Positions 21,007 through 51,842 of a DNA stretch of 64,000 nucleotides are shown one piece after another (position 1 is the first letter of the stretch; each line of letters starts with the position of its first letter). This DNA comes from Theionarchaea archaeon (GTDB lineage: Archaea; Methanobacteriota_B; Thermococci; Methanofastidiosales; SZ-28-30): the NCBI GenBank assembly GCA_018992685.1, contig JACVGT010000003.1, positions 77,050 to 141,049 of the forward strand, in the 5' to 3' direction. A model generated the notes under the pieces. It saw only the letters and a program-made list of their open reading frames with translations, did not search any database and was not told where the DNA came from. Both the position numbers and the translations under genes were made by a program.

Positions 21007-21084
21007 ATGAGCGAGAGGCAGGTATTGCAGGAGACCTGTTCTCCTCGAATCAATGCCGAGAAGGCTAAGGAGTATGAGAAATGA
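21007..21084 (+). CDS. Candidate 25-residue leaderless upstream ORF
   Basis: A short ORF whose ATG lies about 24 bp from the TATA box centre, the spacing used by leaderless genes here. It ends in ATGA, overlapping the start of the membrane protein gene at 21081. The peptide begins MSERQVLQE and contains one Cys and several charged residues. A hairpin AGGAGA-CCTGT-TCTCCT (21029-21045) lies inside it. It may be a leader peptide coupling translation to the downstream gene, or merely the 5' leader. Confidence 0.45.
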   Translation: MSERQVLQETCSPRINAEKAKEYEK

Positions 21085-22073
21085 GCAAAGTACGTTCCAT
21101 AATCTTGCTGCTCGTGGGAGTCAGTATCCTCTTCCTGATGGTGCATCTTGCGGGAGCTGCTGACGTTGCAGATGTTCTGAGAAAGGCAGATGTCTCCTTT
21201 TTCGCACTGGCGTTACTGTGCGAAGGACTAGCGATTCTTCTGTGGGCATTTCGATGGAGAATCCTCCTGAGTCCCTTCAAGTCGGTGTCTCTGAGGAACA
21301 CAGCCAAAGGGATCCTCATTGGAGTGTTTTTCAACAACATAACTCCCGTAGCCAGAGCGGGTGGAGAACCTTTCAGAGCATACTACATGGAGAAAAAAGA
21401 AGGTGTTCCCCTTGAGGATGCTTTTGCCACAGTGACTATTGATCGTATTCTGGACAGCGTTCCTTTCATGGTTATCATCACCGCCTCTCTTGCCTACTTT
21501 GTGATTCTTCTGGACATCAGTCTCAGAATAACTATAATTTTGTGTGTGGCCCTGTTCCTTAATTTAATGTTACTATCAGTGGTTCTGTACTTTTCTTTCA
21601 ATTTGAAGGCAGCCAAGAAATTGATGTTTTCTATATTGCGATTTGTGGCCCATTTCTCTAATAGACTGGAGAAGTATGAGAGCAGGATTGAGGCTGCAGT
21701 GGAACAATACCATGAAGCGGTGAGGACGCTTTCTTCACAGGGCGGGGATTTGATGAAATCTCTTTCGATATCATTTGGGTTTTGGCTTCTCATGATCTTG
21801 AGAAACTACATGATCGTTTTGGCCCTTGGTTATAAGATTAATTTCATGGTTATCATGGTTATACAAGCCATGAGTATTCTTGTCGGGATTGTTCCCTTCC
21901 TTCCAGGAGGATTGGGGTCTATTGATGGAATTATGGTTTTCCTGTTCATGTCGTTCAAGTTCCCAGCAGCGGCTGCAGTGACTGTTTCTCTTTTGGATCG
22001 ATTTGTCAGTTTCTGGATGATGATGGGTGTGGGAGCAGTTGTGGTATTTGTGGAGCGGCAGTACTTGAAATAG
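21081..22073 (+). CDS. LPG-synthase transmembrane-domain/UPF0104 family membrane protein
   Basis: A 330-residue integral membrane protein with about eight helices. Conserved features of the UPF0104 family (the transmembrane part of lysylphosphatidylglycerol synthase, MprF and archaeal AglD) are visible: LWAFRWRILLSPF, FFNNITPVARAGGEPFRAYY, TVTIDRILDSVPF and GIVPFLPGGLGSIDG. There is no lysyl-transferase domain, so a lipid or lipid-linked sugar flippase-like role is likelier (family knowledge plus inference). An AAGGAG motif precedes the ATG, which overlaps the small upstream ORF by ATGA. Confidence 0.85.
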   Translation: MSKVRSIILLLVGVSILFLMVHLAGAADVADVLRKADVSFFALALLCEGLAILLWAFRWRILLSPFKSVSLRNTAKGILIGVFFNNITPVARAGGEPFRAYYMEKKEGVPLEDAFATVTIDRILDSVPFMVIITASLAYFVILLDISLRITIILCVALFLNLMLLSVVLYFSFNLKAAKKLMFSILRFVAHFSNRLEKYESRIEAAVEQYHEAVRTLSSQGGDLMKSLSISFGFWLLMILRNYMIVLALGYKINFMVIMVIQAMSILVGIVPFLPGGLGSIDGIMVFLFMSFKFPAAAAVTVSLLDRFVSFWMMMGVGAVVVFVERQYLK

Positions 22074-27908: not shown

Positions 27909-27946
27909 CTTATAAACTATCTCACTAGTTGGTAGTTTAGCTAAAC
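27909..27946 (+). promoter_or_regulatory. Promoter and palindromic operator of an HTH regulator
   Basis: TATA box CTTATAAAC (27909-27917) and, at the expected transcription start, the perfect 12-bp palindrome GTTTAGCTAAAC (27935-27946). A related 9-mer TAGCTAAAC lies upstream of the paralogous regulator (48122-48130). Position over the start site suggests autorepression. Confidence 0.5.
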
Positions 27947-27985: not shown

Positions 27986-28981
27986 ATGAAGGTTCTGGTG
28001 ATCTACATGGGCGAATTATCGCGCCTGAGAAAAACGAGAAACTTTCACAAGATATTTGAGCAAATTTTTGAGGTGCCTGGAATACCCATATATGAGATAG
28101 CCCAGAAAGTTGGAGTGTCTCGAAATACCGCGTCCAAGTACCTGCAGGAGATGTATGAGGATCAAGTTCTTGTAGGACCTCAGCTCAGGCTGCTGCCAAC
28201 GGTCAACTACAAAGAATTTGTTTATCTAATGAATTTTAAGAATCCTTTTCACTTATTTGAGGGATTAAGGGAGTTCCCTCACGTTCTCTATCATGGAATG
28301 GCTTTTGGAGACTGGAATGCCATGGTAGTTACTGACCGGCTACTGGATTTTTCTCAACTGCTCGGGTTTGAGAACACTGTGTACCAGGGGGTACGATATC
28401 GATCGTACACTCCCAAGGTGGATCATCTTCTCTGGGAGAAAACATTTCATAGATGTGCTGATTATATGAAGACCTTTACCAAGAGAAGAGAACACAAGAG
28501 TCGGGTCCTGGCCCCTTCACTGGATTGGGGAGAAGATCAGTGGAACATATACCAGGCGTTTCGGTTCAATACCAGAAAGACTGTCACTACCACACTGAAA
28601 AGAATTGGAGTACGCTATGAGACGTACGTTGCATGGATAGAGAATCTGGACTCGCACTGTACGGTTCATGCTGGGTTCTATCCCGAAGGATACGAGACCT
28701 ACATGACCTACTGCTTCTTGTTCTCAACAGAATATGAACAATCAATAAAGACTCTCTTTTCTTTTTTCCCCACTACACCTGTCATCATCGAAGTGGGAGA
28801 TCAATTGATGGTGTTCGTTAATGTTGCCCTCTCTGGTGTGAATAGAGAGTTATTCTGTTCAATCTATGATATGAAAGCCCGGGACATCATACAGGGGTTC
28901 AAACAGGCAGTAGCAGTCTTTCATTACCCGCATGCCACACCGTGGAAAAGATTTCTTTCAGAAGAGAAGCGTACCCAATAG
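27986..28981 (+). CDS. HTH transcriptional regulator (paralogue of 47115-48059)
   Basis: A 331-residue protein with an N-terminal winged-HTH (residues 35-70: IAQKVGVSRNTASKYLQEM) and a long C-terminal region containing YKEFVYLMNFKNPFHLFEGL. The regulator at 47115-48059 has the matching LKEYVYFMQFDKPMRVFQEL in the same place, so they are paralogues of a large Lrp-like family. Start could also be the ATG at 28007, which has GGTGAT upstream. It heads the PaaK/FemAB block and may control it; this is inference. Confidence 0.65.
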   Translation: MKVLVIYMGELSRLRKTRNFHKIFEQIFEVPGIPIYEIAQKVGVSRNTASKYLQEMYEDQVLVGPQLRLLPTVNYKEFVYLMNFKNPFHLFEGLREFPHVLYHGMAFGDWNAMVVTDRLLDFSQLLGFENTVYQGVRYRSYTPKVDHLLWEKTFHRCADYMKTFTKRREHKSRVLAPSLDWGEDQWNIYQAFRFNTRKTVTTTLKRIGVRYETYVAWIENLDSHCTVHAGFYPEGYETYMTYCFLFSTEYEQSIKTLFSFFPTTPVIIEVGDQLMVFVNVALSGVNRELFCSIYDMKARDIIQGFKQAVAVFHYPHATPWKRFLSEEKRTQ

Positions 28982-29078
28982 GCGCGCGTGGCGCTGTCTT
29001 CGACATTGTTGCTGTCAGAATAAAGCTCTCAAGCACGGGAATGATTCCACTCTGAACGATACGGCGCTACATGAAAAG

Positions 29079-29282
29079 GCTTATAAGACAAAACGAAGAG
29101 GGCTTACTGAGCGAAAGCGGAAGGTGAGAAGTGTGCCGAAGGAATCTACTTTCTCAGATACTCCTCTTTTCGGAGAAGAATCCTGGATTGAACCCCTCAG
29201 GATATTCTTTCGATCACCTTCTTACAACCTCTGGATCGTAGCTGGATTTTGTTACCATTTCTGCTCAGAGAGGAGGTTCTCT
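29079..29282 (+). promoter_or_regulatory. TATA box and leader with Shine-Dalgarno in a hairpin loop
   Basis: GCTTATAAGA (29079-29088) predicts transcription start near 29110 and a leader of about 175 nt. Just before the ATG, AGAGA-GGAGGT-TCTCT (29267-29282) forms a 5-bp stem whose loop is the Shine-Dalgarno GGAGGT. The stretch 28982-29283 otherwise shows no convincing gene. Confidence 0.45.
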
Positions 29283-29283
29283 A

Positions 29284-30360
29284 ATGACAAGAATTATCCA
29301 GACTGTTGAAGACGTTAATAGGAATACGTGGAACGCCCTTGTGGGCACAGATAAAGTGGAGACAACGTATGATTGGTTTCTATTCTGCGAAGACGTGAAG
29401 CTATCTCCATCCCTTACCTTCTGTCATGCAGTATATACAGAAGACGACGAGATAAAGGGCATCATGCCAGCTTACTCTTATCCCATCTATCTGTACAACT
29501 TCGTCCGAGAGTCAGGCGTGCGTCCTTTGGCACGGTTGTTCCCGAGGATGAAGACCAGGTTCAACATGTCCAAGGTACACATTCCTCTTTCGTGCGACTT
29601 TCGATTTTTCGGAAATATGTCCTATTTTCACGCCTGCCTAAAGGGAATAGAAGAGCACATCAGAATCAATAATCATTTCCTTCTCGTTCTTCAGGATTAT
29701 AAGGAGTCACTCAGCCTCCCAGGATATGTAAAAACAAATGGGTGGCCAGAGGTATGCCTGGATCCCTATCCTTCATGGGAGAGATACCTTGAATCACAGA
29801 AAGGCAAGAGAGCAAAAAGCATTCGGTATGAATACAGAAAAAGTGTTGACTTAGGAACAAAGACTTTCATGACGGACGACATCGATCAGTACACAGACCT
29901 GCTCTATGACATGTATCTGAACGTATGCGATAGGAACGAAGGCATGATTACATATCCCGGAGATTTCTTCAGGAAAATGGAAGATCATCTCTCGCCGTAT
30001 TCGAGGTGTATATTTGCAGAAGATGGCAACGACATTACAGCATACCTCTATCTTCTGGAGAACGAGAACTGGATCTCGTGCAAGTATGCGGGGCGAACCT
30101 ACGAGTCCGAGGACCCGTATGTGTACTTTCGACTGATGTACGAGATGATAAAGTACGCTGCCCGGAAAAAGAAGCCAATTTCGGCAGAAAAAGCAGCATA
30201 CGAGGCAAAACTGAGGAGAGGATTTAGAATTGTGCCACGGTTCAACTATCATCGCTCATACTACCCCGTTGTGGGAGATTTATACCTCAAAATGTATAAG
30301 ACGATTGTTCAGTTCAAGAAAATAGAGAATCTGGAACTTCTGGAATCCCTTCAGGATTGA
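29284..30360 (+). CDS. FemAB/BioF2-like GNAT transferase
   Basis: A 358-residue protein with the fold pattern of GNAT-like FemAB/CelD proteins: two related halves, with SIRYEYRKSVDLGTKT marking the start of the second and RCIFAEDGNDITAYLYLLEN, WISCKYAGRTYES and KPISAEKAAYEAKLRRGF towards the end. Family members transfer aminoacyl or acyl groups onto cell-envelope or lipid-linked precursors. The ATG follows GGAGGT by 6 nt. It overlaps the convergent flippase gene by 10 bp at the 3' ends. Substrate unknown. Confidence 0.65.
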   Translation: MTRIIQTVEDVNRNTWNALVGTDKVETTYDWFLFCEDVKLSPSLTFCHAVYTEDDEIKGIMPAYSYPIYLYNFVRESGVRPLARLFPRMKTRFNMSKVHIPLSCDFRFFGNMSYFHACLKGIEEHIRINNHFLLVLQDYKESLSLPGYVKTNGWPEVCLDPYPSWERYLESQKGKRAKSIRYEYRKSVDLGTKTFMTDDIDQYTDLLYDMYLNVCDRNEGMITYPGDFFRKMEDHLSPYSRCIFAEDGNDITAYLYLLENENWISCKYAGRTYESEDPYVYFRLMYEMIKYAARKKKPISAEKAAYEAKLRRGFRIVPRFNYHRSYYPVVGDLYLKMYKTIVQFKKIENLELLESLQD

Positions 30361-31811
30361 ATTTCTTCCCGGTCGAAAAGGAATTTACGCAGATCAATGA
30401 TCTTGAACGCCACAATGCACAACGCGTAGAATCCCATGCCCAGTCCAATGCCCAGGAACATTCTCTGGTAAAATGCGACAGCAAAGGCCAATACACCTAG
30501 AGAGAGGCATCCCATCTTCAAGATGTCTGATTTCACCGGAGTATAGTACGCATGGTTTCTCATCTTCATACTCAGATACACAAACTTCACAACCATTGAG
30601 GTCAGTGTGGCAAGTGCAGCTCCGGTTATTCCCATTTTCGGAATGAGATATATATTGAGGAGTACGTTCAAAATAAGAGCGAATACGGTAATGTACATGG
30701 GAATCCTTGGCTTGCCCATCCCCTGAAAAGTGACAGAGAATATTGAGCAGAACGACATGAAGAACATTGCCAGGGAGAGCACCATCAATGCAGTGGATGC
30801 CACAACATATTCGACTCCAAAGAAAAGTTTGATCAATCCCTCAGCATACACTACAAACAGAATAGTCAGGGGAAAGGTGGCACCAGACGTGTATTTTAAA
30901 GCATCACAGAGGTATGTGCCCACGTAGCCTTTTTCTCTGGCCATGTCTTCTGAGACTGCAGGGAGCAGGGGCAGAGCCACACTTGAGGCGACAGATGTCA
31001 TGATTCGGGCAATGGGAACTGCTGCATTGTACAGCCCAGCATATGTAACTCCCAGAAAGTAGGTAATGCAGAAGATGTCAAAGCTCATCAGAATCATCAT
31101 GGACACACTGGTAATGGTTTTGGGAATGGCAAAGTCAATGAGCTTTCCCAGGAGACGTACTGACTTTGATCCCCCGGTGAGTGTGAGTTCGCCCCTGAAC
31201 TTCCTTCTGTAGAACAGGTATGCAGCTGCCAATCCTGAGATGTCACCCAAGAGGATTCCGAAGACTGCACCCTCAGCGCCCATACCAGAAGAAACCAGTA
31301 CTATGGCAGCCGCCAGGACTACGAGGTTGTACACCAGGAGTGAATAGGTGTAGAAAGGAGATTCCTGGTATCCCAGAAATATTCCGTCAATGACTAACCA
31401 CAGAGCTTCTACAGGCATGACCAGAACCACAATTCTAATGAGGATGCCCAGGTCAGGTTCGTGGAAAATGGTGTTGGCAATGAAACTGGCAGCCAGGAGG
31501 ACGAGTACAGTAACAACCAGAGACAGAGGAAAAAGATAGTGCATGGCTGTGGCCAGATAATTCTGAGCAGTCTTCATGTTTTTCCTGGCTATCTCTTCAG
31601 AAAGGTACTTTGAGAGGGCTGCTGCAAATCCTGTGAGAGTAAAGGAAGCAGTGATGATGATAACAGGTTCTACTGCACTGATAAGTCCGTATCCTCTTAC
31701 ATCCAGCATACGGGCCATGCTGATCTTGTAGAAGTATCGCACGAACCCAATGGCAAACATAGCCATGAAGACATTAAAGGTATGGCGGGCCAGTCTGTTA
31801 CTTCGATCCAT
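30351..31811 (-). CDS. MOP-superfamily (Wzx/MurJ/MATE-like) flippase
   Basis: A 486-residue membrane protein with about 14 transmembrane helices. It starts SNRLARHTFNVFMAMFAIGF, with FRGELTLTGGSKSVRLLGKL between the halves, as in polysaccharide or lipid-linked oligosaccharide exporters. The ATG at 31811 is chosen because GAGGAG lies 6 nt upstream; the longer frame to 31865 starts inside the likely leader. TATA element at 31866-31877 (minus strand ACTATTAAAAGG). It is the only transporter in the 28-38 kb block and probably moves the block's product across the membrane (inference). Confidence 0.85.
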   Translation of the reverse strand: MDRSNRLARHTFNVFMAMFAIGFVRYFYKISMARMLDVRGYGLISAVEPVIIITASFTLTGFAAALSKYLSEEIARKNMKTAQNYLATAMHYLFPLSLVVTVLVLLAASFIANTIFHEPDLGILIRIVVLVMPVEALWLVIDGIFLGYQESPFYTYSLLVYNLVVLAAAIVLVSSGMGAEGAVFGILLGDISGLAAAYLFYRRKFRGELTLTGGSKSVRLLGKLIDFAIPKTITSVSMMILMSFDIFCITYFLGVTYAGLYNAAVPIARIMTSVASSVALPLLPAVSEDMAREKGYVGTYLCDALKYTSGATFPLTILFVVYAEGLIKLFFGVEYVVASTALMVLSLAMFFMSFCSIFSVTFQGMGKPRIPMYITVFALILNVLLNIYLIPKMGITGAALATLTSMVVKFVYLSMKMRNHAYYTPVKSDILKMGCLSLGVLAFAVAFYQRMFLGIGLGMGFYALCIVAFKIIDLRKFLFDREEIQS

Positions 31812-32034
31812 GGAGAACTCCTCGGCAGTTAACGATATGACGTCGTGATACGCTACCCGAAGCACCCTTTTAATAGTTTGTGTTGAGGAGGAGAGGGAAT
31901 CCCTTGGTGTGACATTTCATTGTGACAGTGTCCAGGAGACAGGAAGGGAACGAATGGTGCCCTCGCCACAGATATTTTTCTTGCTGTAGAGGGAGGTTCT
32001 TTGGCTGTCGATAGTAAATGATTCCTGTTCGTGG

Positions 32035-33318
32035 CTATTTTCTGGGTTTGTGCGCAAGATCAACCTTCACGTGAGAGACTACTGTTCTGAACTTCCCTCT
32101 GCCAGTTTCAGGGATGTGATCCACCCGCTCAAATTCCACCGTCACATCTGAACCCACAGCACATTTGACATTGGTCACGAGCAGATTCTCCAATTCTACC
32201 GTAAATGAAGGGTGAGGTATCACCTGTACGGTTATGTGCTCGCAGGTATTCTGAGTTACCCTGAACTGCTTGATATGAGGAATAGAAAAGAAATGCGCAA
32301 TGAGGCGAGTGGGAGGTATCAATTCTCCAGAAGGCGAAACAATAAAATCGTCGCACCTCCCTTCAATATCCTTGAGAACAGGTAGTGTTCTGCCGCACTG
32401 GCAGGGCTCGTCAGAAGGGATTCCAATGTCCTGTAACCGATATCTGATGAATGGCATGGCTCTATTCCACAAGTTTGTAACAACGATCTCACCTCGCTCT
32501 CCTGGAGCCACAGCCTCTCCATCTCTCAGGAATTCTACAATTCCCCCATCTACGTCAATGTGCATGGAATGGTGTTTACATTCCCAGGCGATTGAGATCA
32601 TTTCATATGCGCCATACTTATTATAGGTGGGGCAGTTGAAGATTCTTTCTATGTAGGCTCTATGCCAGGGCAGTGAGAGTTCTCCTCCCAAGAGTATCAT
32701 TCTTGGGTTACTTCTCACACGAGATCTTTCTGCTGCGTGAGCAAGAGCCACCATAGCAGATGGATGCCCAGCCAGTATGTACGGACGCTCTTTTTCTATT
32801 TCCTTGACAAGTTCTGTATCAGATCGCCCTTCCATGATACCCTGGGTTCTCAGAAACGACATGTTCTCGTAAAGTTCATACTCTTCTGGGTCTCTGCAAA
32901 GGATACAGAACTTATGCCAAGGCCTCACTCCCTGGGCCAGGTGGCTTCGCAATGATACTGCTCGCATCCTGCTGACTGCATATGGATCATGCAAGACTCT
33001 GAGCACGCTCCCTGATGCCCCCGAAGTCAACTCCACTGAACAATTCTCTTCAGAAAACCCTGCAGCTACACTTCTCACAGGATACCCCTCCTTGATTTCT
33101 GCCTTGGACGTGAAGGGGATCTTCTTCAGGTCGTCCAGCGTCTTGATGTCCCATGGGTTGATGCCTGCATTTCTAAATTTCTCTTTGTAAAGCAGGGTAT
33201 TTCTGTATGCAAACCTCACGATATATCTCATTCGTTTTTCCTGGAATCTTTTCACGTATTCTGGAGAAGCATATTGTGTTTTGTATGCTACAGGAACGTA
33301 TGCAAATGCTTTCCACAT
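32035..33318 (-). CDS. PaaK/CapK-like adenylate-forming ligase 1
   Basis: A 427-residue member of the phenylacetate-CoA ligase/CapK (coenzyme F390 synthetase-like) family, which activates carboxylates as adenylates. Motifs: VELTSGASGSVLRVLHD (P-loop type), NKYGAYEMISIAWEC, RGEIVVTNLWNRAMPFIRYR and CQCGRTLPVLKDIEGRCDD. In the P-loop the usual STG is ASG. The ATG at 33318 with GAGGTG upstream is preferred over the longer ORF to 33348. Two further paralogues follow on the other strand. Substrate unknown. Confidence 0.85.
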   Translation of the reverse strand: MWKAFAYVPVAYKTQYASPEYVKRFQEKRMRYIVRFAYRNTLLYKEKFRNAGINPWDIKTLDDLKKIPFTSKAEIKEGYPVRSVAAGFSEENCSVELTSGASGSVLRVLHDPYAVSRMRAVSLRSHLAQGVRPWHKFCILCRDPEEYELYENMSFLRTQGIMEGRSDTELVKEIEKERPYILAGHPSAMVALAHAAERSRVRSNPRMILLGGELSLPWHRAYIERIFNCPTYNKYGAYEMISIAWECKHHSMHIDVDGGIVEFLRDGEAVAPGERGEIVVTNLWNRAMPFIRYRLQDIGIPSDEPCQCGRTLPVLKDIEGRCDDFIVSPSGELIPPTRLIAHFFSIPHIKQFRVTQNTCEHITVQVIPHPSFTVELENLLVTNVKCAVGSDVTVEFERVDHIPETGRGKFRTVVSHVKVDLAHKPRK

Positions 33319-33359
33319 GAATTCACCTCTGACAAGACTCAGCAGCATTAGAGCGGAAA

Positions 33360-33426
33360 GAACTTCTAAAGTTCCTGGTTTGACCGCAATAGCAACTGCT
33401 CCAATGACTACTTCTACCTGTAGAAG
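33360..33426. promoter_or_regulatory. Two palindromes between divergent PaaK-like genes
   Basis: GAACTTCTAAAGTTC (33360-33374; 6-bp arms) and CTTCTACCTGTAGAAG (33411-33426; 7-bp arms, 2-bp centre). They lie between the start at 33318 and the divergent start at 33600 and are likely operator sites; the cognate regulator is unknown. Confidence 0.45.
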
Positions 33427-33599
33427 ATCTTAATAAGCTTTTCTTCAGCATCCTGCAAGGAGATACTGACGTCTCCTGGGACCATTGGCATACCTGTTCT
33501 AAAATCTGTGCATAACCTCTTCAGGGGTATACTTGATGTGTGGTCTGAACCCATTGGATGGTGGCACAACCTTTATTAGTAATATCCTAAATTTTTCAT

Positions 33600-34859
33600 A
33601 TGCTGCTCGAAACAGCTCGTCTCTTGTGGAAGATCCGAAATGAACAATGGCTTTCTCCTGAGATATTGGATGACATTCGACAAAAGAGACTGAGAGAAAT
33701 AGTTCATCATGCGTACAACAATACTCGGTTCTACAGGGACTTGTTCACCAAGAATGGTATTGCCCCTTCAGACATCAAAACCAAAGAGGACTTGACTCTT
33801 CTTCCACCCACTACCAAGAGTGATCTTCAGGACAGGTTCCAAGACCTGGTGGCTGTCGGGTATTCTCCTGAGAACTGTTACGTGTACCACACGTCAGGGT
33901 CCACCGGTACCCCTGCTACCATGTTGTATGATTCCTTTGCCAAAGCCTACACAGGGGCTGAAGACTACGTTTTCATGTTTGACGTGGGGTACAAGCCCTG
34001 GGAGAAGATTGCCTACACCAAGAGAACGCCCTGGACGTCCCATCCCTTACAGGCTCTTGGAATCATGCGGGCCTGCCACATATTGTCCTCTCTTCCTGAG
34101 GAAGAACAGGCGCGTCTCCTCCAGAAAGTGAATCCTTCACTCGTCGTTTCCTATCCCCTTCTTCTCCATTCCATTGCCAGGGCTGCTCGCAATGAGGGCT
34201 GCAACATCCATCCGAAGGCCGCAATCGTCGGTGGGGAACTCCTCACCCCACAGGTACGCGCTTTCATTGAAGAGGTTCTCTCTACCTCAATCTTCGAGAC
34301 CTATGCTACGGTAGAATTCGCCACCATAGCCAAGGAATGTTCTCTCCACAACTGGCACATACACAGTACCCGCTGCCTGGTTGAATTCGTGGACGGAAGA
34401 ATACTAGTTAGCGGGCTTATCAACAAAGCCCTTCCATTACTGCGTTATGAGATTGGAGATAGAGGAGCACCTAAAGAAGGGGTCTGCCCCTGCGGAAGGG
34501 GGTACCCCATGATGCAGATTCTTGAAGGACGATCTGGAGATCTCTTCATTCTTCCCAATGGGAGGGAAATCCCTCCGCTCCGCGTGTTCAAGACACGGCT
34601 GATACTGGACAGCAATGAGGCGGCCAAAAGGTATCAGATAATCCAGGAGGATTATGACCATTTCACCATTCGCGTGGTTCCCACTCCAGCTTTCACGGAT
34701 GTCATAGCCCAGCAACTGAAAGCACAATTAGTAGAAGACCTGCAGTATCCTGCGACTGTGGACATTGAGGAGGTAGACACCATACCCCTGATTGATGACC
34801 GCAAGTTGAGGGTCAATATCTCTCGCGTCAGGAAGAAGTGCTGTGAAGATTCCGGATAG
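33600..34859 (+). CDS. PaaK/CapK-like adenylate-forming ligase 2
   Basis: A 419-residue paralogue of the ligases at 32035 and 34980. P-loop VYHTSGSTGTPATMLYD, TYATVEFATIAKECS and CPCGRGYPMMQILEGRSGD are present, so the adenylation site looks intact. The region between is more divergent (ILVSGLINKALPLLRYEIGD). The TATA box CTTTATTAG (33571-33579) is centred 25 bp before the ATG, predicting leaderless mRNA and its own promoter. The three paralogues may handle different acids or steps; this is inference. Confidence 0.85.
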   Translation: MLLETARLLWKIRNEQWLSPEILDDIRQKRLREIVHHAYNNTRFYRDLFTKNGIAPSDIKTKEDLTLLPPTTKSDLQDRFQDLVAVGYSPENCYVYHTSGSTGTPATMLYDSFAKAYTGAEDYVFMFDVGYKPWEKIAYTKRTPWTSHPLQALGIMRACHILSSLPEEEQARLLQKVNPSLVVSYPLLLHSIARAARNEGCNIHPKAAIVGGELLTPQVRAFIEEVLSTSIFETYATVEFATIAKECSLHNWHIHSTRCLVEFVDGRILVSGLINKALPLLRYEIGDRGAPKEGVCPCGRGYPMMQILEGRSGDLFILPNGREIPPLRVFKTRLILDSNEAAKRYQIIQEDYDHFTIRVVPTPAFTDVIAQQLKAQLVEDLQYPATVDIEEVDTIPLIDDRKLRVNISRVRKKCCEDSG

Positions 34860-34979
34860 CTGCAGCTGTGGATCAGGGAACAAAGTGACTCAAAAAGACA
34901 CCGATTGATGCGAGTGTGAGAAGATGAGAGACATTCATGAGAGGACTACACTTATAAGGAACAAAAAGAAGGGAATCAA

Positions 34980-36236
34980 ATGCTAGTCCAGACACTGTCT
35001 TGTCTGCCACAGGTTCTAGCCAGGGAGTGGAAGACCACAGCTTCTATTCAGAGATATTCACTGGCTGAGATGCGCTCTCTATTACGAGAGGTATTTCGCA
35101 CCAATCCATTCTACAAGACAAAACTGGAGAATCTCAATATTGAGAAAATACGATCAATCGAAGATCTGTCTGCTATCCCTTTTACCACAAAGGGTGAGTT
35201 GCGGAAAGCATTTCCTGGTGCCATTTCTGAAGGGTACACTCCCGAGAAATGTGTCCATGAATCAACCTCAGGTTCGACAGGTGATGTGCTGAGCATCTAT
35301 CATGATCCCTTCGCCTGCAGTTACTATGACGCGATATCTCTCAGGGAGTACATCGGACTACACATGTGGCCCTGGTACAAAATGTCGTACATCAGATTCG
35401 AGCCTCAACCCAGGAGGGCCTTCGAGCAGATAGGTCTCCTCCGCAAGTACTACATCCCTGTTACTGCCTCTGCAGAAGAACAGCTTCGCCTGGCGCAGAG
35501 TCACAATCCACAGGTTATTAGCGGGTACCCTTCCTCACTATATGAAATAGCCCGTATTTACAGGGAGGATTCAGTCTCTTGGGATTTGAAAATGATCCTG
35601 TCGAACTCTGAACTGCTTACCGATTCCATGAGGGAGTACATGGAATCTGCGTTCGGCTGCCCTGTCTACAACGACTACTCTTCCTTTGAACTGCATAACA
35701 TAGCGGCTGAATGCCCCTTTAAAAGCTTGCACATACATGTTGACAATAACATTGTAGAAATCATCAGAGAAGGAGAACAGGCAGCTCCAGGAGAGACTGG
35801 TGAGATAGTGGTCACCAACATTAGAAACAGGGCCATGCCCTTCATACGGTACCGGACAGGTGACTATGGAGCACTCGATGAAGAACCCTGCCCCTGCGGG
35901 AGAGGACTACCAGTTCTCAAGAGTATTGAAGGACGGAAAGACGAGTATCTGATCTTGCCATCAGGGGGCCACGTTTCTCCCCGCGTATTTGATCCACTGG
36001 ATTCAATCTTTCACCAGTACGTTTCCAAGTTCCAGATTATTCAAGAGCGGAAAGACAGATTTCTGATAAAGGTGGTCAGGGAAGGGAATTACCATGATGG
36101 CGTGACAGACATGCTTGTCAAGGAGGCTAAGAGGTGTTTTCCGCAGCCAATAGAGGTGGAGGTCATACCAGTGGAAGATATTTCCAGAACTGGAAGGGGA
36201 AAGCTCCGTGCAGTCTTGTGCGAGGTGGCCTCATGA
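34980..36236 (+). CDS. PaaK/CapK-like adenylate-forming ligase 3
   Basis: A 418-residue third paralogue. P-loop STSGSTGDVLSIYHD, YNDYSSFELHNIAAEC, GEIVVTNIRNRAMPFIRYRT and CPCGRGLPVLKSIEGRKDE match the family; the C-terminal lysine region ends in TGRGKLRAV. TATA box CTTATAAGG (34951-34959) centred 25 bp before the ATG, so leaderless. The GNAT gene downstream overlaps its stop by ATGA, and a FemAB-like gene follows, so activation and transfer functions are co-transcribed. Confidence 0.87.
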   Translation: MLVQTLSCLPQVLAREWKTTASIQRYSLAEMRSLLREVFRTNPFYKTKLENLNIEKIRSIEDLSAIPFTTKGELRKAFPGAISEGYTPEKCVHESTSGSTGDVLSIYHDPFACSYYDAISLREYIGLHMWPWYKMSYIRFEPQPRRAFEQIGLLRKYYIPVTASAEEQLRLAQSHNPQVISGYPSSLYEIARIYREDSVSWDLKMILSNSELLTDSMREYMESAFGCPVYNDYSSFELHNIAAECPFKSLHIHVDNNIVEIIREGEQAAPGETGEIVVTNIRNRAMPFIRYRTGDYGALDEEPCPCGRGLPVLKSIEGRKDEYLILPSGGHVSPRVFDPLDSIFHQYVSKFQIIQERKDRFLIKVVREGNYHDGVTDMLVKEAKRCFPQPIEVEVIPVEDISRTGRGKLRAVLCEVAS

Positions 36237-37168
36237 TCCGGAGGCTTCGCATCTCTGATACTGATCAGTTTGTGGAGATTTTGAACAGTGCCTTTGGCAG
36301 GGAGCTCCATCACATTGGAGGACAATATGGAGCCACCAAGAGGAAAATGATGGTTCAGTATCTGGGAATTCGAATGCTGCAGAGACTGTTTGGAGATGTC
36401 AGGGATCTGCAGGACATATTTGCGTACTATGATGGGCGCACTGTGCTGGGTATCACTCAAATGGTCCTCATGAACGCGCACAAGAATCACTGGTATTCTG
36501 AGATGACTGCAGTCAGGGAAAACCTCCAGAAGAAGGGAGTGGGCACAGCTCTGAAGCAATTCACCATAGAGTATTACACAGGGAAGGCACGACGGTTTTT
36601 TGGGAATTTGAGGGAAGAAAACGTGGCTTCATTGAAAACTAACGCTCGGGTGGGGTATGTCCCATATGTGAGGGATATTCTGTTCAAGAGAGAACCTTCC
36701 AGAAAAGGTGAGAGGAGACATATTGAAGGCTTCAGACACTTTAAAGGAGATGAGAAAGGAGTATTCGATCTGTATATGAGAACCACTCCTCCAGACATTA
36801 GAGAACTGGAGGACAAAGTCCTCGATGACTTCGGTCTGGGGGCAGTGATGAAGGTACTGGCTCTTCTGGGCGCGGTCACAGGCGTAGGAGATAATCGGTA
36901 CGTCATTGAACGTGATGGCAGAATCTGTGCCTACTTTTCCTTTGAAAAGCTGTGGTCAACCTACGAGAATGTTGAGCTCATGGTGGACCCTACATGCCCT
37001 GAAGGCCCGGACATGGTAAAGGATGTTGTCCTGGCAGTGTCACCCTCAAGTCACTTGGTCTGTTTTGTCCCCGAATACCGGGCAATTGAGAAGCAGGGGC
37101 TGATCAAGGCCGGGTTTGAGGAAGAAGAGCCATATCTGAGAATTGTGCGAGTTTTTCAAGGTGGGTGA
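36233..37168 (+). CDS. GNAT-family acyltransferase
   Basis: A 311-residue protein starting MIRRLRISDTDQFVEILNSA, with the acyl-CoA binding motif A in EMTAVRENLQKKGVGTALK and ENVASLKTNARVGY at the end of the first GNAT domain. A second domain (about residues 165-311) looks like a degenerate GNAT. The ATG overlaps the stop of PaaK-like ligase 3 (ATGA), so it is in the same operon. The longer ORF beginning at 36134 would overlap the ligase by 100 bp and is not used. Substrate unknown. Confidence 0.75.
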   Translation: MIRRLRISDTDQFVEILNSAFGRELHHIGGQYGATKRKMMVQYLGIRMLQRLFGDVRDLQDIFAYYDGRTVLGITQMVLMNAHKNHWYSEMTAVRENLQKKGVGTALKQFTIEYYTGKARRFFGNLREENVASLKTNARVGYVPYVRDILFKREPSRKGERRHIEGFRHFKGDEKGVFDLYMRTTPPDIRELEDKVLDDFGLGAVMKVLALLGAVTGVGDNRYVIERDGRICAYFSFEKLWSTYENVELMVDPTCPEGPDMVKDVVLAVSPSSHLVCFVPEYRAIEKQGLIKAGFEEEEPYLRIVRVFQGG

Positions 37169-37173
37169 GGTTA

Positions 37174-38202
37174 ATGAATGAGGAATCAGAGGTATCTGTA
37201 CACAGGACTGTCCGTGATTTCACTGAGAAAGAGTGGAACAGGGTGGCGGGCAGTATGTTTCCTGAACGTTGCCATGGCTGGTATCGGGCTGTCGAAGATT
37301 CCCGGATGCGGGACTTGTACTATGTGGCGTTCAGGGAAAAGCGTACCCTGGCTGCAGCCCTTGGCTGCTATCCTTTTGTTGAGAAGCAATTCGGGATTAG
37401 TGTTCCCTTTCTTGAGGTGGGATGTCCTCTCGGCACAGCATCATCATTCTTCCCTCAGAACCCCGAGCATATTCCACCCCTTTTGAGAGGGATAGAACAG
37501 ATCAGGAAACAGGAGAAGATCAGAGGAACACTGATTTTTGATCTCAAACAGGAAGAAGCTGATTTTGTCAAGGAAGGTCTTAAGGGATTCTCACTGTTCC
37601 GTGCACTGGAGAGAACGTACATTGATCTCGATTTCTCTGATTTTGACGACTACCTGGATTCCCTCGATTCGAGTGACAGGAGGAGTATCAGGAAGACTCT
37701 CAATAGGGCTGAGAAGCGGTGGAAAATAAACCACGTTCTCACAGGCGAACTGTCAAAATGGGGGCACACTGCTCACCAGTTGCAGGGGTATCTGTGCGGA
37801 GAGCACCGTGACTTCCGTATGCATCTCAGTGAGCAGTTCTATGAAGCTCTGGAGACGAACATGAAGGGCTCAGCAGAACTGACTGTGTTCCTGAAAGACG
37901 ACATACCTCTGGCCACTGGGCTGGTGCTTAACTCTCAAGAAGCAGCTGTCCACAAGTTCCCGGGAATAGATCCTCAATACAGACAGTATCAGGCTTATTT
38001 TCTGCTGTACTACGAGGGGATCAGAACAGCCATTGAACGGAAGCAAAAAAGAATCTATTTCGGCACGACTACCTATGGTTTCAAGGAAAAGATAGGCTGC
38101 GGAAGAGAACCGCTGCTGGGGTTTGTCAAGTTCATGAATCCAGTGACCACTCGTTTGTTGGGACACTATCTTGCCTGGAGATCATCGCAAATGAATCGGT
38201 AG
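37174..38202 (+). CDS. FemAB/BioF2-like GNAT transferase
   Basis: A 342-residue protein related in layout to the gene at 29284: two GNAT-like halves, with TYIDLDFSDFDDYLDSLDSS and SIRKTLNRAEKRW before the second half and YRQYQAYFLLYYEGIRTAIE and IYFGTTTYGFKEKIGCGREP near the end. These traits are typical of FemAB-like/CelD transferases. The ATG at 37174, with GGTGAGG upstream, is preferred over the GTG at 37165, although either is possible. It is the third gene of the ligase 3 - GNAT operon. Confidence 0.65.
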   Translation: MNEESEVSVHRTVRDFTEKEWNRVAGSMFPERCHGWYRAVEDSRMRDLYYVAFREKRTLAAALGCYPFVEKQFGISVPFLEVGCPLGTASSFFPQNPEHIPPLLRGIEQIRKQEKIRGTLIFDLKQEEADFVKEGLKGFSLFRALERTYIDLDFSDFDDYLDSLDSSDRRSIRKTLNRAEKRWKINHVLTGELSKWGHTAHQLQGYLCGEHRDFRMHLSEQFYEALETNMKGSAELTVFLKDDIPLATGLVLNSQEAAVHKFPGIDPQYRQYQAYFLLYYEGIRTAIERKQKRIYFGTTTYGFKEKIGCGREPLLGFVKFMNPVTTRLLGHYLAWRSSQMNR

Positions 38203-38370
38203 CTCAGATTGTCGTTCTCAAGGAAAAGAAGAGAAAGACGAGAACCTGGGTTTCATTTGTCCTATTTGAGTGCGGGGACCAAATTGAAGCCAGAAGGATC
38301 AGAACACAGCTGCAAAGATGCAGAGTATCATTCCTATGCTCTCTGAGGTAATTTGACGCCCTCCGGTAAT

Positions 38371-38378
38371 ATTATAAA
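38371..38378 (+). promoter_or_regulatory. TATA box of the KaiC-HAD gene
   Basis: ATTATAAA, centred 26.5 bp before the GTG at 38401. This spacing argues for that GTG as the start of a leaderless transcript, instead of the TTG at 38353. Confidence 0.6.
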
Positions 38379-38400
38379 GGTAACCTGCAAAGAACCCTCG

Positions 38401-39717
38401 GTGACAGAAGAGCTTACTCCAACGGAGATACTGGAACTGGAACTTCCTCCAGGAATAAGTGTCCTGATTGTCGGTCCTCCTGGGAGTGGGAAGACTATTC
38501 TTGCCCAGCAGCTGGTATATCGGGCTTTGAGAAAAGGAAAGTCTGCCATTGTAATGGCATCCAAGAGTCAGATTAATGCACTACGCCTGCAGGAGAAGAT
38601 TTTCGGATGGGATGTTTCTCTGGACCTCAGCGAAGGAAGGCTGGGCCTCATGGAAATCGAGAACGTCGGTGATCCAGCAGAACTGAATATTGGGCTTGCC
38701 CAGATCATACAGGAAGTGACGCCTCCTCTGGCCCTTGTGGTTGTGGATTCATTGACAGTGCTGATGGTGGCCATGGAAGAGAGGAACATTATGAAGTTCA
38801 CAGAAGGACTGGCCAGGAAACTTCAGGACCACAGAGTCAGTTCACTGCTCCTTGCTACTCCCACCAAGGAGACGGAGGATTTTCTCACCAAGATGAAGTC
38901 GCTGGTTTCGTCTGTCATCGAAATACGCCTGACTGAAATCGGGACAATCCGCAGGTACATGCGGATTTTCAAATTCCTGGACAGAAAGCATTCAACCTTA
39001 TGGTACCCTTTTGAGATTACAAATGAAGGGATCAGGTTTGCAGCCTCTGCGGTAAAGACTCCAGATACTTTTCTATTTGATTTGGATGGCACCTTGGTGA
39101 CCATGGAACTGGATTTTGTGAGCATCAGAAAAGAAGTGGACGACATTCTTGTCAGATGGGGATATCCTGGTGAGCTTCTGGATGAGGTCAAGTCCACGCT
39201 GGAAATCATCCAGGATGCAGTGTTCTACCTCAAGACTCACAACCAAGACGGAGAAGGACTGAAGAAGGAGGCAGAGACGTATCTGGAGCAGGTGGAGATG
39301 GAAGCTGCATCCAGAGCTCAGCCCATCCAGGGAGCCAGGACTGTTCTGCAGATACTGAAGAAAAAGAAGAGGAAAGTGGGAATCATTACCCGGAATCATC
39401 GTGAAGTAGCATGTCGGGTGTTGAAGCGATGCAACCTGGAACAGTATGTGGACCTTCTGCTGGCAAGAGATGATGTCGAACGGGTCAAGCCCCATCCTGA
39501 CCATGTTCTCGAAGCTATAAAGAGACTGGGATCAGAGCCTGAGAAGACAGTGGTCCTGGGAGACCATCACTACGAGATTGAGGCGGGAAATGAGGCAGGC
39601 TGTTTTACCATTGGCGTCCTGACTGGGTCGGGAACCAGAAAAACCTTGAAAGATGCAGATCTCATCTTGAATTCTGTTGAGGATTTAAGAGAAGTATTTA
39701 GAACTGTGGGACGATAA
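38401..39717 (+). CDS. KaiC/RecA-like ATPase fused to a HAD-family phosphatase
   Basis: A 438-residue two-domain protein. Residues 1-215: KaiC-like RecA-fold ATPase with Walker A GPPGSGKT (25-32), Walker B ALVVVDSLTVLM and a segment LLLATPTKETEDFLTKM. Residues 220-438: HAD phosphatase with the nucleophile motif TFLFDLDGTLVTME, motif II GIITRNHREV, Lys in RVKPHPDHV and motif IV VVLGDHHYEIEAGNEAG. Both sites look complete. The join is in frame. It overlaps the convergent DUF429 gene by 20 bp. Role unknown; it may couple an ATP-dependent switch to dephosphorylation. Confidence 0.85.
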   Translation: MTEELTPTEILELELPPGISVLIVGPPGSGKTILAQQLVYRALRKGKSAIVMASKSQINALRLQEKIFGWDVSLDLSEGRLGLMEIENVGDPAELNIGLAQIIQEVTPPLALVVVDSLTVLMVAMEERNIMKFTEGLARKLQDHRVSSLLLATPTKETEDFLTKMKSLVSSVIEIRLTEIGTIRRYMRIFKFLDRKHSTLWYPFEITNEGIRFAASAVKTPDTFLFDLDGTLVTMELDFVSIRKEVDDILVRWGYPGELLDEVKSTLEIIQDAVFYLKTHNQDGEGLKKEAETYLEQVEMEAASRAQPIQGARTVLQILKKKKRKVGIITRNHREVACRVLKRCNLEQYVDLLLARDDVERVKPHPDHVLEAIKRLGSEPEKTVVLGDHHYEIEAGNEAGCFTIGVLTGSGTRKTLKDADLILNSVEDLREVFRTVGR

Positions 39718-47114: not shown

Positions 47115-48059
47115 TTATAGCGGATGTTCTCTCCTATTCTGGTAGATGGGAAGCACGTATTTCAGGTCTTCTGCAATTCCATTGTCCTGCATCCAGTGAA
47201 GGATGCCGAAGAATTCTGTGAAAGAAGAACTGCGCAGAATGTTGACCCAGGCAACGAGATGATTCTCCACTTTGAAGGTCAACCCCGTGCAGGGGAGCTG
47301 CAGGAGGAAGTCTGACAGCCCTTTCTCGTAGTCAGTCTTCAGGAGGAGGTAGAAATCCGCATACATGGAAGCTCCTTCAGGATAGTAGGGGACTGTGACA
47401 ATGCAATTTTCTTTGACTCGATCATAGCTCTGATAGAAGAGCCACTTCGAGATCTTGTGTTTCTTTACAATTTCAGTGAACGTTCTTCTCATATTGTACT
47501 TCAGATCGTAAAATAACCGCCATTCCAAATCAGTCCAGACGATTTTTCTTGAGGGGAGGTCTGTAGAGAGAAACCCTGGTTCCAATTTCTCCTCCTGCAA
47601 GTTTTTCTTGAATTCATCGAATACATCCCGATAGGTCGTATGTGTCACGTGGGTGAAGGAGTAGTCTCCTCGAAATCCTTCCAGTACTGTTTCTTTATGA
47701 CTGGGATGCGACTCGAAATCCATGGGAGAATCCGTAAACACAATCAGGTCAAAAGCACCTGACGTTAAACACTGGAAAATTACTCGGGGATTCCCTTCGA
47801 GTTCTTGAAAAACTCTCATAGGTTTGTCAAATTGCATGAAGTACACATATTCCTTCAGATCTTGAAACATCTTGAGTCGTAGTCCGGGAGGGAAAAGGAT
47901 CTCGTGGTCGATCATGTGGTTGTAGTGAGAGGTTACTGTATTCCTCGCCAGCCCCAATTTGCGAGATATGCTTGTGAGGGAAATCCTTTCATCCTGAACA
48001 AGTTGCTCATAAATGCTGAGACGAATATCCGCTTTTTGTGGTTCAGTCAATCTGCTCAC
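47115..48059 (-). CDS. HTH transcriptional regulator (paralogue of 27986-28981)
   Basis: A 314-residue protein starting with a GTG. An N-terminal winged HTH (residues 8-50: SIYEQLVQDERISLTSISRK, LARNTVTSHYNHM) is followed by LKEYVYFMQFDKPMRVFQEL, which matches the paralogue at 27986. The remaining region may bind a ligand. A TATA box (minus strand TTTATATAG, about 48091-48101) and the related half-operator TAGCTAAAC (48122-48130) lie upstream. Its target genes are unknown. Confidence 0.65.
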   Translation of the reverse strand: MSRLTEPQKADIRLSIYEQLVQDERISLTSISRKLGLARNTVTSHYNHMIDHEILFPPGLRLKMFQDLKEYVYFMQFDKPMRVFQELEGNPRVIFQCLTSGAFDLIVFTDSPMDFESHPSHKETVLEGFRGDYSFTHVTHTTYRDVFDEFKKNLQEEKLEPGFLSTDLPSRKIVWTDLEWRLFYDLKYNMRRTFTEIVKKHKISKWLFYQSYDRVKENCIVTVPYYPEGASMYADFYLLLKTDYEKGLSDFLLQLPCTGLTFKVENHLVAWVNILRSSSFTEFFGILHWMQDNGIAEDLKYVLPIYQNRREHPL

Positions 48060-48121
48060 TTTATCTACCCATGTTTTTTTATACAGAAAGTCTATATAAA
48101 GATTTGTACCGTTCAGCTCGA

Positions 48122-48130
48122 TAGCTAAAC
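48122..48130 (-). promoter_or_regulatory. TAGCTAAAC half-operator upstream of an HTH regulator
   Basis: Matches nine bases of the 12-bp palindrome GTTTAGCTAAAC at 27935-27946 near the paralogous regulator. It lies about 20 bp upstream of the TATA box. Confidence 0.35.
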
Positions 48131-48156
48131 TGGCACAATGTACTATCGCCCCCCTC

Positions 48157-48181
48157 GAGATCGGTCCACTGGACCGATCTC
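48157..48181. repeat. Perfect 12-bp-arm palindrome
   Basis: Arms GAGATCGGTCCA and TGGACCGATCTC flank a single central C. It overlaps the stop codon of the AsnB-like gene and lies upstream of the HTH regulator promoter, so it could be a terminator hairpin (loop of 5 nt if inner pairs open) or an operator. No T-tract follows on the minus strand. Confidence 0.6.
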
Positions 48182-49355
48182 ACACCTTCTTTTGGCAGTA
48201 TTTCTGGGACAGAGCATTCAGGAGCGAGGTGTGAGCTCTGACAATGTGGTGGATACCGCTCCCGTATTGCAGTGCTTTCTTAGATTTTGAAACAAGTGGC
48301 TTCGGGATACCGGCCAAAGCTGCGATCTTTCTGAGGAATTCCTTTCTCCGGGGGACAAAGTGACGATACGTTGGCACGCCCAGTACTGCTTCTACAAGGT
48401 CAGTACCCAGGTAGGGGTACCGTATTATTTTTGAGAAATGTTCAGCAACCTCACAATCCCGTTCCAGTCCCAGATAGAGATTCTCAAGATCCTTTCTCAT
48501 CACAGGGTGGACGTGAACTCCCTCCCTGAATGCTTTTTCATATTTGAAGTATCCGCCAAAAAGCTCATCTGCTCCCTGGCCAGATATGAGAAGAGTTCCT
48601 TCATATTCCCGACAGAGGAAAAAAAGGAGCAGCCCAATTTCAACATTCAGCAGTGTCACCTCAGAGAGCAACGCACAGACCTGAGGAATGGCTTCCACGA
48701 TATCATGCGGGGACACCACTATCTCTAGAAGTTCTTCTCCAAGAATGGAGGCTGCCTCTCGGGCATTTGCTATGTCCTGGGAAGTCTGTAGGCCACAGCT
48801 GATAAGAAAGCTGTCAGAAAGAAAAGCCAGCAAGGTACTGTCAATTCCTCCCGAAAACATGACGGCTGATCCCTTGTCGGTCTGTTGTTGAGTAGTCTTT
48901 CGCAGTATGTCCAGAACTTCTGCAGGATTGTCAGTGAACCTCTCTTCCAGCATGTGGCGGTAGCAAATGGTTCCCGGCAATCGGACTAGCTCCCCGGGAA
49001 GAACTGGCCGGCCACCCTCAATGTTATGGGAGGCAAAATTCTGTCTGCGGTAATACAGTGGTTTAAGTCCCACAGGGTCTTTCAAGAGATAGGTTCTCCC
49101 TTCTTTCCTTACAGCACACGCATATCCGCCTTTGACGGTGTTGAATATGGTCCTTGCTGCCTGTATGGGATCTGGTTCCACCTCAAAAAAGGTATTCAGG
49201 TAGTGAGCAGGATCAGATATTCCGTAAAGGTCTGCATCGCACACCAGATTCTCACTGATTCCTTCGACCTGAGAACATGCCATGTCCCCCCGCTGCAGGG
49301 AAATTTCCATGGATGCTGCCAGTTCTTTCACTTTGTTTCCGCCGCATATTCTCAT
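48180..49355 (-). CDS. Asparagine synthase (AsnB)-like protein
   Basis: A 391-residue protein. The C-terminal PP-loop synthetase domain has VMFSGGIDSTLLAFLSD and LLISGQGADELFGGYFKYE, intact for adenylating aspartate or another carboxylate. The N-terminal class II glutaminase-like half (residues 1-150) is short. It starts MRICGG: the expected N-terminal nucleophile cysteine is at position 4 and not 2, so glutaminase activity is doubtful. The ATG is fixed by the TATA element at 49376-49386, 26 bp away (leaderless). It shares this element with the divergent CDIN1-like gene. Confidence 0.8.
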   Translation of the reverse strand: MRICGGNKVKELAASMEISLQRGDMACSQVEGISENLVCDADLYGISDPAHYLNTFFEVEPDPIQAARTIFNTVKGGYACAVRKEGRTYLLKDPVGLKPLYYRRQNFASHNIEGGRPVLPGELVRLPGTICYRHMLEERFTDNPAEVLDILRKTTQQQTDKGSAVMFSGGIDSTLLAFLSDSFLISCGLQTSQDIANAREAASILGEELLEIVVSPHDIVEAIPQVCALLSEVTLLNVEIGLLLFFLCREYEGTLLISGQGADELFGGYFKYEKAFREGVHVHPVMRKDLENLYLGLERDCEVAEHFSKIIRYPYLGTDLVEAVLGVPTYRHFVPRRKEFLRKIAALAGIPKPLVSKSKKALQYGSGIHHIVRAHTSLLNALSQKYCQKKV

Positions 49356-49375
49356 GAAATGGATTCCGGACGAAA

Positions 49376-49386
49376 GATTTTTAAGG
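49376..49386. promoter_or_regulatory. Shared bidirectional TATA box
   Basis: GATTTTTAAGG; its centre (49381) is exactly 26 bp from both the AsnB-like ATG (49355) and the CDIN1-like ATG (49407). Read on the other strand it is CCTTAAAAATC. Confidence 0.7.
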
Positions 49387-49406
49387 TTTTGGCAAAAGGA
49401 TGAATA

Positions 49407-51822: not shown

Positions 51823-51842
51823 TTACAACTCCTCTCAATATC

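What the first reader, a model, noticed from the sequence alone, without database searches (positions are those of the whole stretch)
27986..38202. Accessory block of three PaaK/CapK-like ligases, two FemAB-like transferases, a GNAT and a flippase without glycosyltransferases
Three paralogous adenylate-forming ligases, two FemAB/BioF2-like transferases, one GNAT and one MOP-type flippase sit together under an HTH regulator. In capsule loci, CapK-like ligases and flippases occur beside glycosyltransferases, which are absent here. This suggests a pathway that activates one or more carboxylates, transfers them to a carrier, lipid or peptide-like acceptor and exports the product. The combination could be an undescribed cell-surface or metabolite assembly system. 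The link between the genes is inferred from adjacency and family.
Basis: partly seen in the sequence, partly recalled or inferred. Interest (0 to 1): 0.75.

Follow-up and report, generated by a model that had tools for sequence, protein, structure and literature searches.

The report
Archaeal surface-acylation gene block
A sediment archaeon carries an eight-gene block of three predicted carboxylate-activating ligases, three predicted acyl-group transferases, a predicted membrane flippase and a predicted regulator, with no match to the two main sugar-linking enzyme families within about 48 kb, and it would likely fasten acyl groups onto a surface precursor made elsewhere in the genome, a lineage-specific variant of a set known from bacterial slime-polymer loci.

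Summary
Window 27986-38202 encodes an HTH protein, two FemAB-fold proteins, a MOP flippase, three PaaK/CapK-like ligases and a tandem GNAT. None of 35 window proteins scanned with Pfam is a glycosyltransferase; the nearest PF00534/PF00535 match lies 47.9 kb upstream, none in the 105 kb downstream. The host is a Theionarchaeon. A congener keeps the block in order under purifying selection, but its flanks are syntenic too.

The set has precedent: bacterial PEP-CTERM exopolysaccharide loci combine CapK, FemAB and Wzx, with glycosyltransferases. The same archaeal genome has a second ligase/FemAB locus with a GT2 and a DUF3473 polysaccharide deacetylase. No exosortase or PP-binding carrier domain was detected.

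Best reading: ligases make acyl-CoAs, GNAT and FemAB proteins N-acylate a precursor built by glycosyltransferases encoded elsewhere, and the flippase exports it. Substrate, donor and acceptor are inferred. New variant of a known kind; moderate interest.

The parts
27986..28981 (+). HTH-domain protein, predicted local regulator (331 aa); TATA-like cttataaac at 27909-27917
   Evidence: paralogue at 47115-48059; 79% identical over 298 codons in G001
29284..30360 (+). FemAB1, FemX-fold transferase (358 aa); 3' end overlaps flippase by 10 nt, convergent
30351..31865 (-). MOP-superfamily flippase (504 aa, SpoVB/MurJ/Wzx-like)
   Evidence: PF13440 78 bits, MurJ 61 bits; TIGR02900 114 bits vs cut-off 372
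32035..33348 (-). Ligase A, PaaK/CapK-like adenylate-forming ligase (437 aa)
   Evidence: NF045666 126 bits vs cut-off 300; 4r1l 4.7e-31; motifs
33600..34859 (+). Ligase B, PaaK/CapK-like ligase (419 aa), long branch in tree, divergent from ligase A (251 nt between starts)
34980..36236 (+). Ligase C, PaaK/CapK-like ligase (418 aa); TATA-like cttataag 22-29 nt upstream of ATG
36233..37168 (+). Tandem GNAT, predicted N-acyltransferase (311 aa), ATGA overlap with ligase C; 13 homologues detected
   Evidence: PF00583 31 bits; tandem-GNAT fold; QxxGVG motif
37174..38202 (+). FemAB2, FemAB-fold transferase (342 aa from ATG 37174; ORF opens at GTG 37165)
   Evidence: PF04339 53.2, PF13480 49.2, PF02388 30.3 bits; paralogues 45-52% at C12/C68/C49

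Best explanation
The block encodes three PaaK/CapK-like ligases, a tandem GNAT, two FemAB-fold proteins, a MOP flippase and an HTH protein, and most likely works as an acyl-decoration cassette in which the ligases would activate carboxylates (probably as acyl-CoAs), the GNAT and FemAB proteins would transfer the acyl groups to amines of a lipid-linked glycan or glycolipid precursor, and the flippase would carry the product outward. The precursor itself is inferred to be built by glycosyltransferases encoded elsewhere in the genome. Shown: gene content, family matches, conserved ligase motifs, the ligase C-GNAT-FemAB2 gene run, purifying selection against one congener, no PF00534/PF00535 match within about 48 kb, no PP-binding domain detected. 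Inferred: CoA as acyl carrier, free amines as acceptors, a glycan or glycolipid as the acceptor molecule, export by this flippase.
For: (1) Ligase C, GNAT and FemAB2 overlap or abut (36233/36236; 37168/37174). (2) Identical longest-contig lengths: ligase C-GNAT 6 pairs and ligase C-FemAB1 3 pairs (own genome counted once in each; one further ligase C-GNAT pair, 283,403, carries the name Theionarchaea archaeon and may be the congener), among 30 ligase C, 13 GNAT and 27 FemAB1 hits; at 120 shifted offsets the mean was 0.03 and 0.02, max 1. One contig (2,699 nt) holds little more than the two genes. (3) dN/dS 0.06-0.15 for the eight genes against the congener, HTH and FemAB1 over partial sequence, dS near saturation (0.9-2.3). 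(4) Second locus in the same genome (C12; C68 in the congener): GT2, 2 FemAB (4 in congener), DUF3473 polysaccharide deacetylase, methyltransferase, 2 ligases (3 in congener, one partial). FemAB2-type gene beside an O-antigen polymerase in the congener (C49); FemAB1-type gene beside a polyprenyl synthetase (C1). (5) 2 of 4 FemAB loci lie at ligase loci, P 0.004-0.016 under a uniform, after-the-fact model. (6) Bacterial precedent: deacetylase, FemAB, CapK and Wzx in Rubrivivax psc1; FemX-like HfsK proposed to acylate amines exposed by deacetylase HfsH; FemAB in 14 of 78 ligase loci here, 12 of the 14 with a GT. (7) No PF00550 match in the genome; 11 of 14 control genomes have one. (8) The GNAT model matches tandem GNATs including glucosamine N-acetyltransferase and mycothiol synthase.
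Against: No acceptor, deacetylase or GT was found in the block. Congener synteny extends over the flanks, so it does not show selection on the cluster as a unit. The genes form at least three transcription units on two strands. 7 of 13 GNAT and 24 of 27 FemAB1 hits have no contig-length match to ligase C, and GNAT and FemAB1 share only the own contig. FemAB1's closest folds (FemX, Sbb17, MprF) are aminoacyl-tRNA users (MprF's donor recalled). Ligase pairs also sit in fetched stretches without FemAB (C25, C113) and an A-type ligase sits next to an aldehyde ferredoxin oxidoreductase. No exosortase detected.
Confidence: 0.5

Rival explanations
1. FemAB1 and FemAB2 are aminoacyl-tRNA-dependent transferases that add amino acids to a lipid or glycan amine (like FemX, MprF or streptothricin Sbb17), and the ligases act in another, neighbouring step.
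Against: Ligase C, GNAT and FemAB2 are one tight gene run; ligases and FemAB recur together at C12/C68. A shared fold does not fix the donor.
Confidence: 0.22
2. The ligases are ordinary acyl-CoA ligases for fermentation or degradation of organic acids, and their neighbourhood with FemAB and flippase genes is incidental.
For: The A-type ligase at C8 lies next to an aldehyde ferredoxin oxidoreductase, and the same arrangement is in the congener; the two genomes have 8 and 10 such ligases, several in pairs without FemAB in the fetched stretches.
Against: Co-location of FemAB and ligase loci at P 0.004-0.016 under a simple model; contig-length linkage of ligase C and GNAT down to 55-61% identity; the C8 locus also has a deacetylase homologue about 6 kb away.
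Confidence: 0.13
3. The block makes and exports a small acylated metabolite (lipopeptide- or siderophore-like) rather than decorating a surface polymer.
For: PaaK-like ligases with solved structures include AjiA1 and 6siw (their natural-product context recalled); the GNAT model matches a clavulanate-pathway tandem GNAT; the flippase also matches MatE.
Against: No PP-binding domain detected in the genome; no scaffold or tailoring genes in the block; the flippase scores best with SpoVB and polysaccharide models.
Confidence: 0.1

Closest known systems
XrtA/PEP-CTERM-type bacterial exopolysaccharide loci (e.g. Rubrivivax gelatinosus psc1, PMC3684757, passages read)
   Same: CapK-like ligase, FemAB-type protein and Wzx-type flippase in one region; the same archaeal genome has a second ligase/FemAB locus with a DUF3473 deacetylase and a GT2
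   Different: No GT or deacetylase found at the block and no exosortase in the genome; three ligases and a tandem GNAT family seen in 13 proteins only; FemAB proteins score 19-26 bits against a TIGR03019 cut-off of 260
HfsK/HfsH holdfast modification in Caulobacter (PMC5362036, passages read)
   Same: FemX-like double-GNAT protein proposed to acylate amines of an exported polysaccharide
   Different: No partner ligase is mentioned in the passages read; here ligases and a second GNAT protein are adjacent and no deacetylase is
PaaK/CapK-type adenylate-forming ligases
   Same: Sequence family, P-loop, A5/A7/A8-type motifs and CPCGR motif aligned to 4r1l
   Different: A Theionarchaea-rich clade in the tree, far below curated PaaK cut-offs (103-117 vs 700 bits for NF041878)
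FemABX aminoacyl transferases (FemX, FemA)
   Same: FemAB1 fold over nearly the whole chain
   Different: Archaeal host, 10-14% identity, donor unknown; peptidoglycan is not expected in an archaeon (general knowledge)

Membership tests
XrtA/PEP-CTERM exopolysaccharide locus | Exosortase (PF09721) in the genome | tested here: not met
   0 matches in G000, 91% complete; the control rings in 1 of 14 genomes, M. jannaschii
XrtA/PEP-CTERM exopolysaccharide locus | FemAB protein over the TIGR03019 cut-off | tested here: not met
   19.3 and 25.9 bits vs 260.35
XrtA/PEP-CTERM exopolysaccharide locus | DUF3473-type polysaccharide deacetylase and glycosyltransferases in the locus | tested here: not met
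   None in the block; both present at the separate C12 locus
Wzx/Wzy capsule locus | MOP flippase | tested here: met
   PF13440/PF01943/PF03023 over cut-off
Wzx/Wzy capsule locus | Glycosyltransferases beside the flippase | tested here: not met
   No PF00534/PF00535 match within 47.9 kb upstream or 105 kb downstream; no GT family in 35 scanned window proteins
PaaK/CapK-like adenylate-forming ligases | Sequence relationship to PaaK with conserved adenylation motifs | tested here: met
   4r1l/2y27 matches; T96-S97-G98..G101, E237, D295, E317-G318-R319, K408 (ligase C numbering) invariant in the three ligases; motif roles recalled
PaaK/CapK-like adenylate-forming ligases | Ligase activity and substrate | not testable with these tools
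   needs enzyme assay
FemABX | Tandem-GNAT FemX fold | tested here: met
FemABX | Aminoacyl-tRNA as donor | not testable with these tools
   needs transfer assay

The most novel reading that the evidence does not exclude
A Theionarchaea-specific acylation pathway in which up to three ligase-made acyl donors are placed by FemX-fold transferases on a lipid-linked surface molecule in an archaeon: FemX chemistry rewired from aminoacyl-tRNA to acyl-CoA, giving a previously undescribed acylated archaeal envelope polymer or lipid.
Probability: 0.2. Interest if true: 0.65.

Novelty: new variant of a known kind. Interest (0 to 1): 0.42.

Why it matters
Archaeal envelope chemistry outside S-layers and N-glycans is poorly mapped (general knowledge). 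An expanded ligase family (8 and 10 copies in the two genomes seen), twice placed with FemAB-fold transferases, gives concrete, testable enzyme sets for acyl decoration of archaeal surface molecules. A block without detected GT genes separates the decoration step from polymer building, which in the bacterial loci examined come mixed together (a GT in 65 of 78 loci).

Tried and rejected
Exosortase-linked system: not supported, no PF09721 match. Carrier-protein (NRPS-like or Dlt-like) route: not supported, no PF00550 match. Ordinary capsule locus with GTs just outside: rejected for PF00534/PF00535. Broad archaeal conservation: not found. The four non-Theionarchaeal archaeal loci (L040, L092, L115, L116) lie in genomes without a PF04339 match. 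Solved-structure sequence searches with the flippase and with the FemAB profile gave nothing at E 0.01 and 0.1. Of those 80 loci, L037 and L038 (congener) were dropped for the counts, leaving 78; in 8 of 78 no ORF was labelled as ligase (probably displaced by longer overlapping ORFs), so ligase+FemAB counted on labelled ORFs is 11, 10 of them with a GT, and FemAB in any of the 78 loci is 14, 12 with a GT. Many loci have under 10 kb on a side, so these are lower bounds. The ligase tree used 77 rows: 19 ligases of the two genomes, 13 of the 120 listed proteins, and the 45 best remaining ligase hits of 380-480 aa; short search, SH-aLRT only, several long branches; the clade that holds the Theionarchaeal ligases also holds three named as Methanolobus, Herpetosiphonaceae and Pseudomonadota. 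Literature: FemAB + PEP-CTERM + phenylacetate 0 papers; Theionarchaea 34, 20 listed; CapK/FemAB/archaea/polysaccharide 17, 15 listed; PaaK-like + adenylate + amide + ligase 0; CapK/exopolysaccharide/FemAB 31, 15 listed; HfsK/acyltransferase/holdfast/FemX 28, 10 listed. Judging by titles and abstract starts, no listed paper describes this archaeal block; only open-licence papers are held. PMC7848895 passages mention FemAB domains in sponge Thaumarchaeota only.
Full report
What is there. Window 27986-38202 (contig C5:105035-115251 of the host genome G000, 3.03 Mb, 45 contigs) holds eight open genes: HTH protein, FemAB1, flippase (minus strand), ligase A (minus strand), ligase B, ligase C, tandem GNAT and FemAB2. 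Ligase C ends at 36236 and the GNAT starts at ATG 36233; the GNAT ends at 37168 and FemAB2 most likely starts at ATG 37174. FemAB1 and the flippase overlap tail to tail by 10 nt. Ligases A and B diverge. So there is one three-gene run and several single genes, not one operon.

Host. The best ligase C relatives with a name are called Theionarchaea or Candidatus Methanofastidiosia archaeon. G001, the same genus, has contig lengths equal to those of Theionarchaea isolate SZ_28-30. It carries all eight genes in the same order and strands, with HTH and FemAB1 cut by one 100-N assembly gap. The flanks are syntenic as well, so this pair of genomes shows survival, not clustering pressure. dN/dS is 0.064-0.146 for the eight genes and 0.028-0.129 for six flanking genes; dS is near saturation (0.9-2.3) and HTH and FemAB1 were compared over 298 and 225 codons.

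Glycosyltransferases. PF00534 has 13 and PF00535 14 matches in the genome; those on C5 all lie at 48486-57183, the last one 47.9 kb upstream of the block, and none lies downstream to the contig end at 220584. None of the 35 window proteins scanned with Pfam is a GT; 24 of the 59 ORFs were not scanned. HMMs grown from this genome's own GT4 and GT2 proteins and bacterial hits find none in the window; the GT2 one recovers the C12 GT2, but the GT4 one had no known positive in that file. The neighbourhood is mostly housekeeping: seryl-tRNA synthetase, ribosomal protein S15, Alba, AIR-synthase-like protein, RuBisCO.

Ligases. The three are 31-37% identical to each other. They align to PaaK structures 4r1l, 2y27 and 2y4o with the P-loop, the A5 glutamate, the RY...D motif and the EGR motif conserved, plus an invariant C-terminal lysine. 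The alignment of ligase C to 4r1l stops before the lysine, so that assignment is from the motif only (motif names recalled). The genome has eight such ligases plus one weak partial match: C5 x3, C12 x2, C25 x2, C8 x1. In a quick tree they fall in a Theionarchaea-rich clade apart from 45 mostly bacterial ligases (SH-aLRT 99), with an A-type subclade (window A, C12b, C25b, C8, and C113a of the congener) often paired with a ligase from another branch; ligase B sits on a long branch.

Linkage in more distant relatives. I could not fetch those contigs. As a substitute I compared longest-contig lengths. 6 ligase C-GNAT pairs have identical lengths (220584 own; 283403, named Theionarchaea archaeon and possibly the congener; 47311; 3677; 2699; 7203), 3 ligase C-FemAB1 pairs (220584 own; 50877; 75877), and one pair joins ligase C to another ligase (68759). 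Shifted offsets give means of 0.03 and 0.02. The 2,699-nt contig holds little more than ligase C and the GNAT, so adjacency is kept at 55-61% identity. GNAT and FemAB1 share only the own contig; 7 of 13 GNAT and 24 of 27 FemAB1 hits have no match.

Same genome, other loci. C12 (L009) holds a GT2, two FemAB2-like proteins (50-52% identical), a DUF3473 polysaccharide deacetylase, a methyltransferase and two ligases; the congener's C68 has four FemAB and three ligases, one partial. C49 of the congener has a FemAB2-like gene between an O-antigen polymerase and a solute-binding protein. C1 has a FemAB1-like gene (46%) next to a polyprenyl synthetase. C8 has an A-type ligase next to an aldehyde ferredoxin oxidoreductase, with a deacetylase homologue about 6 kb away. 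C25 and C113 have ligase pairs without FemAB in the fetched stretches. A different flippase with two GT4 genes is on C28.

Distribution. FemAB2 relatives at 1e-8: 2 of 115 genomes of the phylum. Ligase C relatives at 1e-60: 2 of 101. In 392 genomes of the phylum of G115: PF04339 in 6, ligase in 131, both only in G251, on different contigs of a draft. In 78 non-Theionarchaeal ligase loci: GT in 65, FemAB in 14 (12 with a GT), flippase in 22, deacetylase in 25, ligase+FemAB+flippase in 6.

How it most likely works. Three ligases would activate carboxylates as acyl-CoAs (no PP-binding carrier was found). The tandem GNAT and the FemAB proteins would move the acyl groups onto amines of a lipid-linked sugar or glycolipid. 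The flippase would carry it out. Glycosyltransferases encoded elsewhere, for instance on C12, C28, C6 or C5:48-57 kb, would supply the precursor. Every arrow here is inference; the genes, family matches, motifs and gene run are shown. The donor question (acyl-CoA or aminoacyl-tRNA for the FemAB proteins) is the weakest link.

Comparison. The combination is known in bacterial PEP-CTERM-type exopolysaccharide loci: Rubrivivax psc1 lists a PEP-CTERM-type polysaccharide deacetylase, a FemAB protein, CapK, Wzx, asparagine synthases and GTs (PMC3684757, passages). HfsK is a FemX-like protein proposed to acylate exopolysaccharide, perhaps at amines exposed by HfsH (PMC5362036, passages). The block is not a member of the XrtA system: no exosortase detected and FemAB scores far under TIGR03019. 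Verdict: new variant of a known kind.

Noticed in passing
window 38353-39717 (+): Fusion of a KaiC-like ATPase domain with a HAD-type phosphatase domain directly downstream of the block; kept in the congener.
   Followed up: no
window 47115-49355 (-): HTH paralogue of the block's regulator beside an asparagine-synthase-like protein; asparagine synthases are also listed in the bacterial psc1 locus.
   Followed up: no
window 21081-22073 (+): Lysylphosphatidylglycerol synthase TM-region protein (PF03706) 6 kb upstream of the block, a possible lipid-related membrane protein.
   Followed up: no
window 51843-53138 (+): RuBisCO large-chain protein.
   Followed up: no
L011 7070-10598 and L034 9832-13029: A-type PaaK-like ligase next to an aldehyde ferredoxin oxidoreductase (domains scanned in L011); the same arrangement in the congener by BLAST.
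   Followed up: partly
L010 886-7907: Ligase pair near an APH-type kinase and S-adenosylhomocysteine hydrolase, with no FemAB in the fetched 14 kb.
   Followed up: no
L119 8485-11252: FemAB2-like gene next to a putative O-antigen polymerase in the congener.
   Followed up: partly
L036 9347-11627: FemAB1-like gene next to a polyprenyl synthetase.
   Followed up: partly
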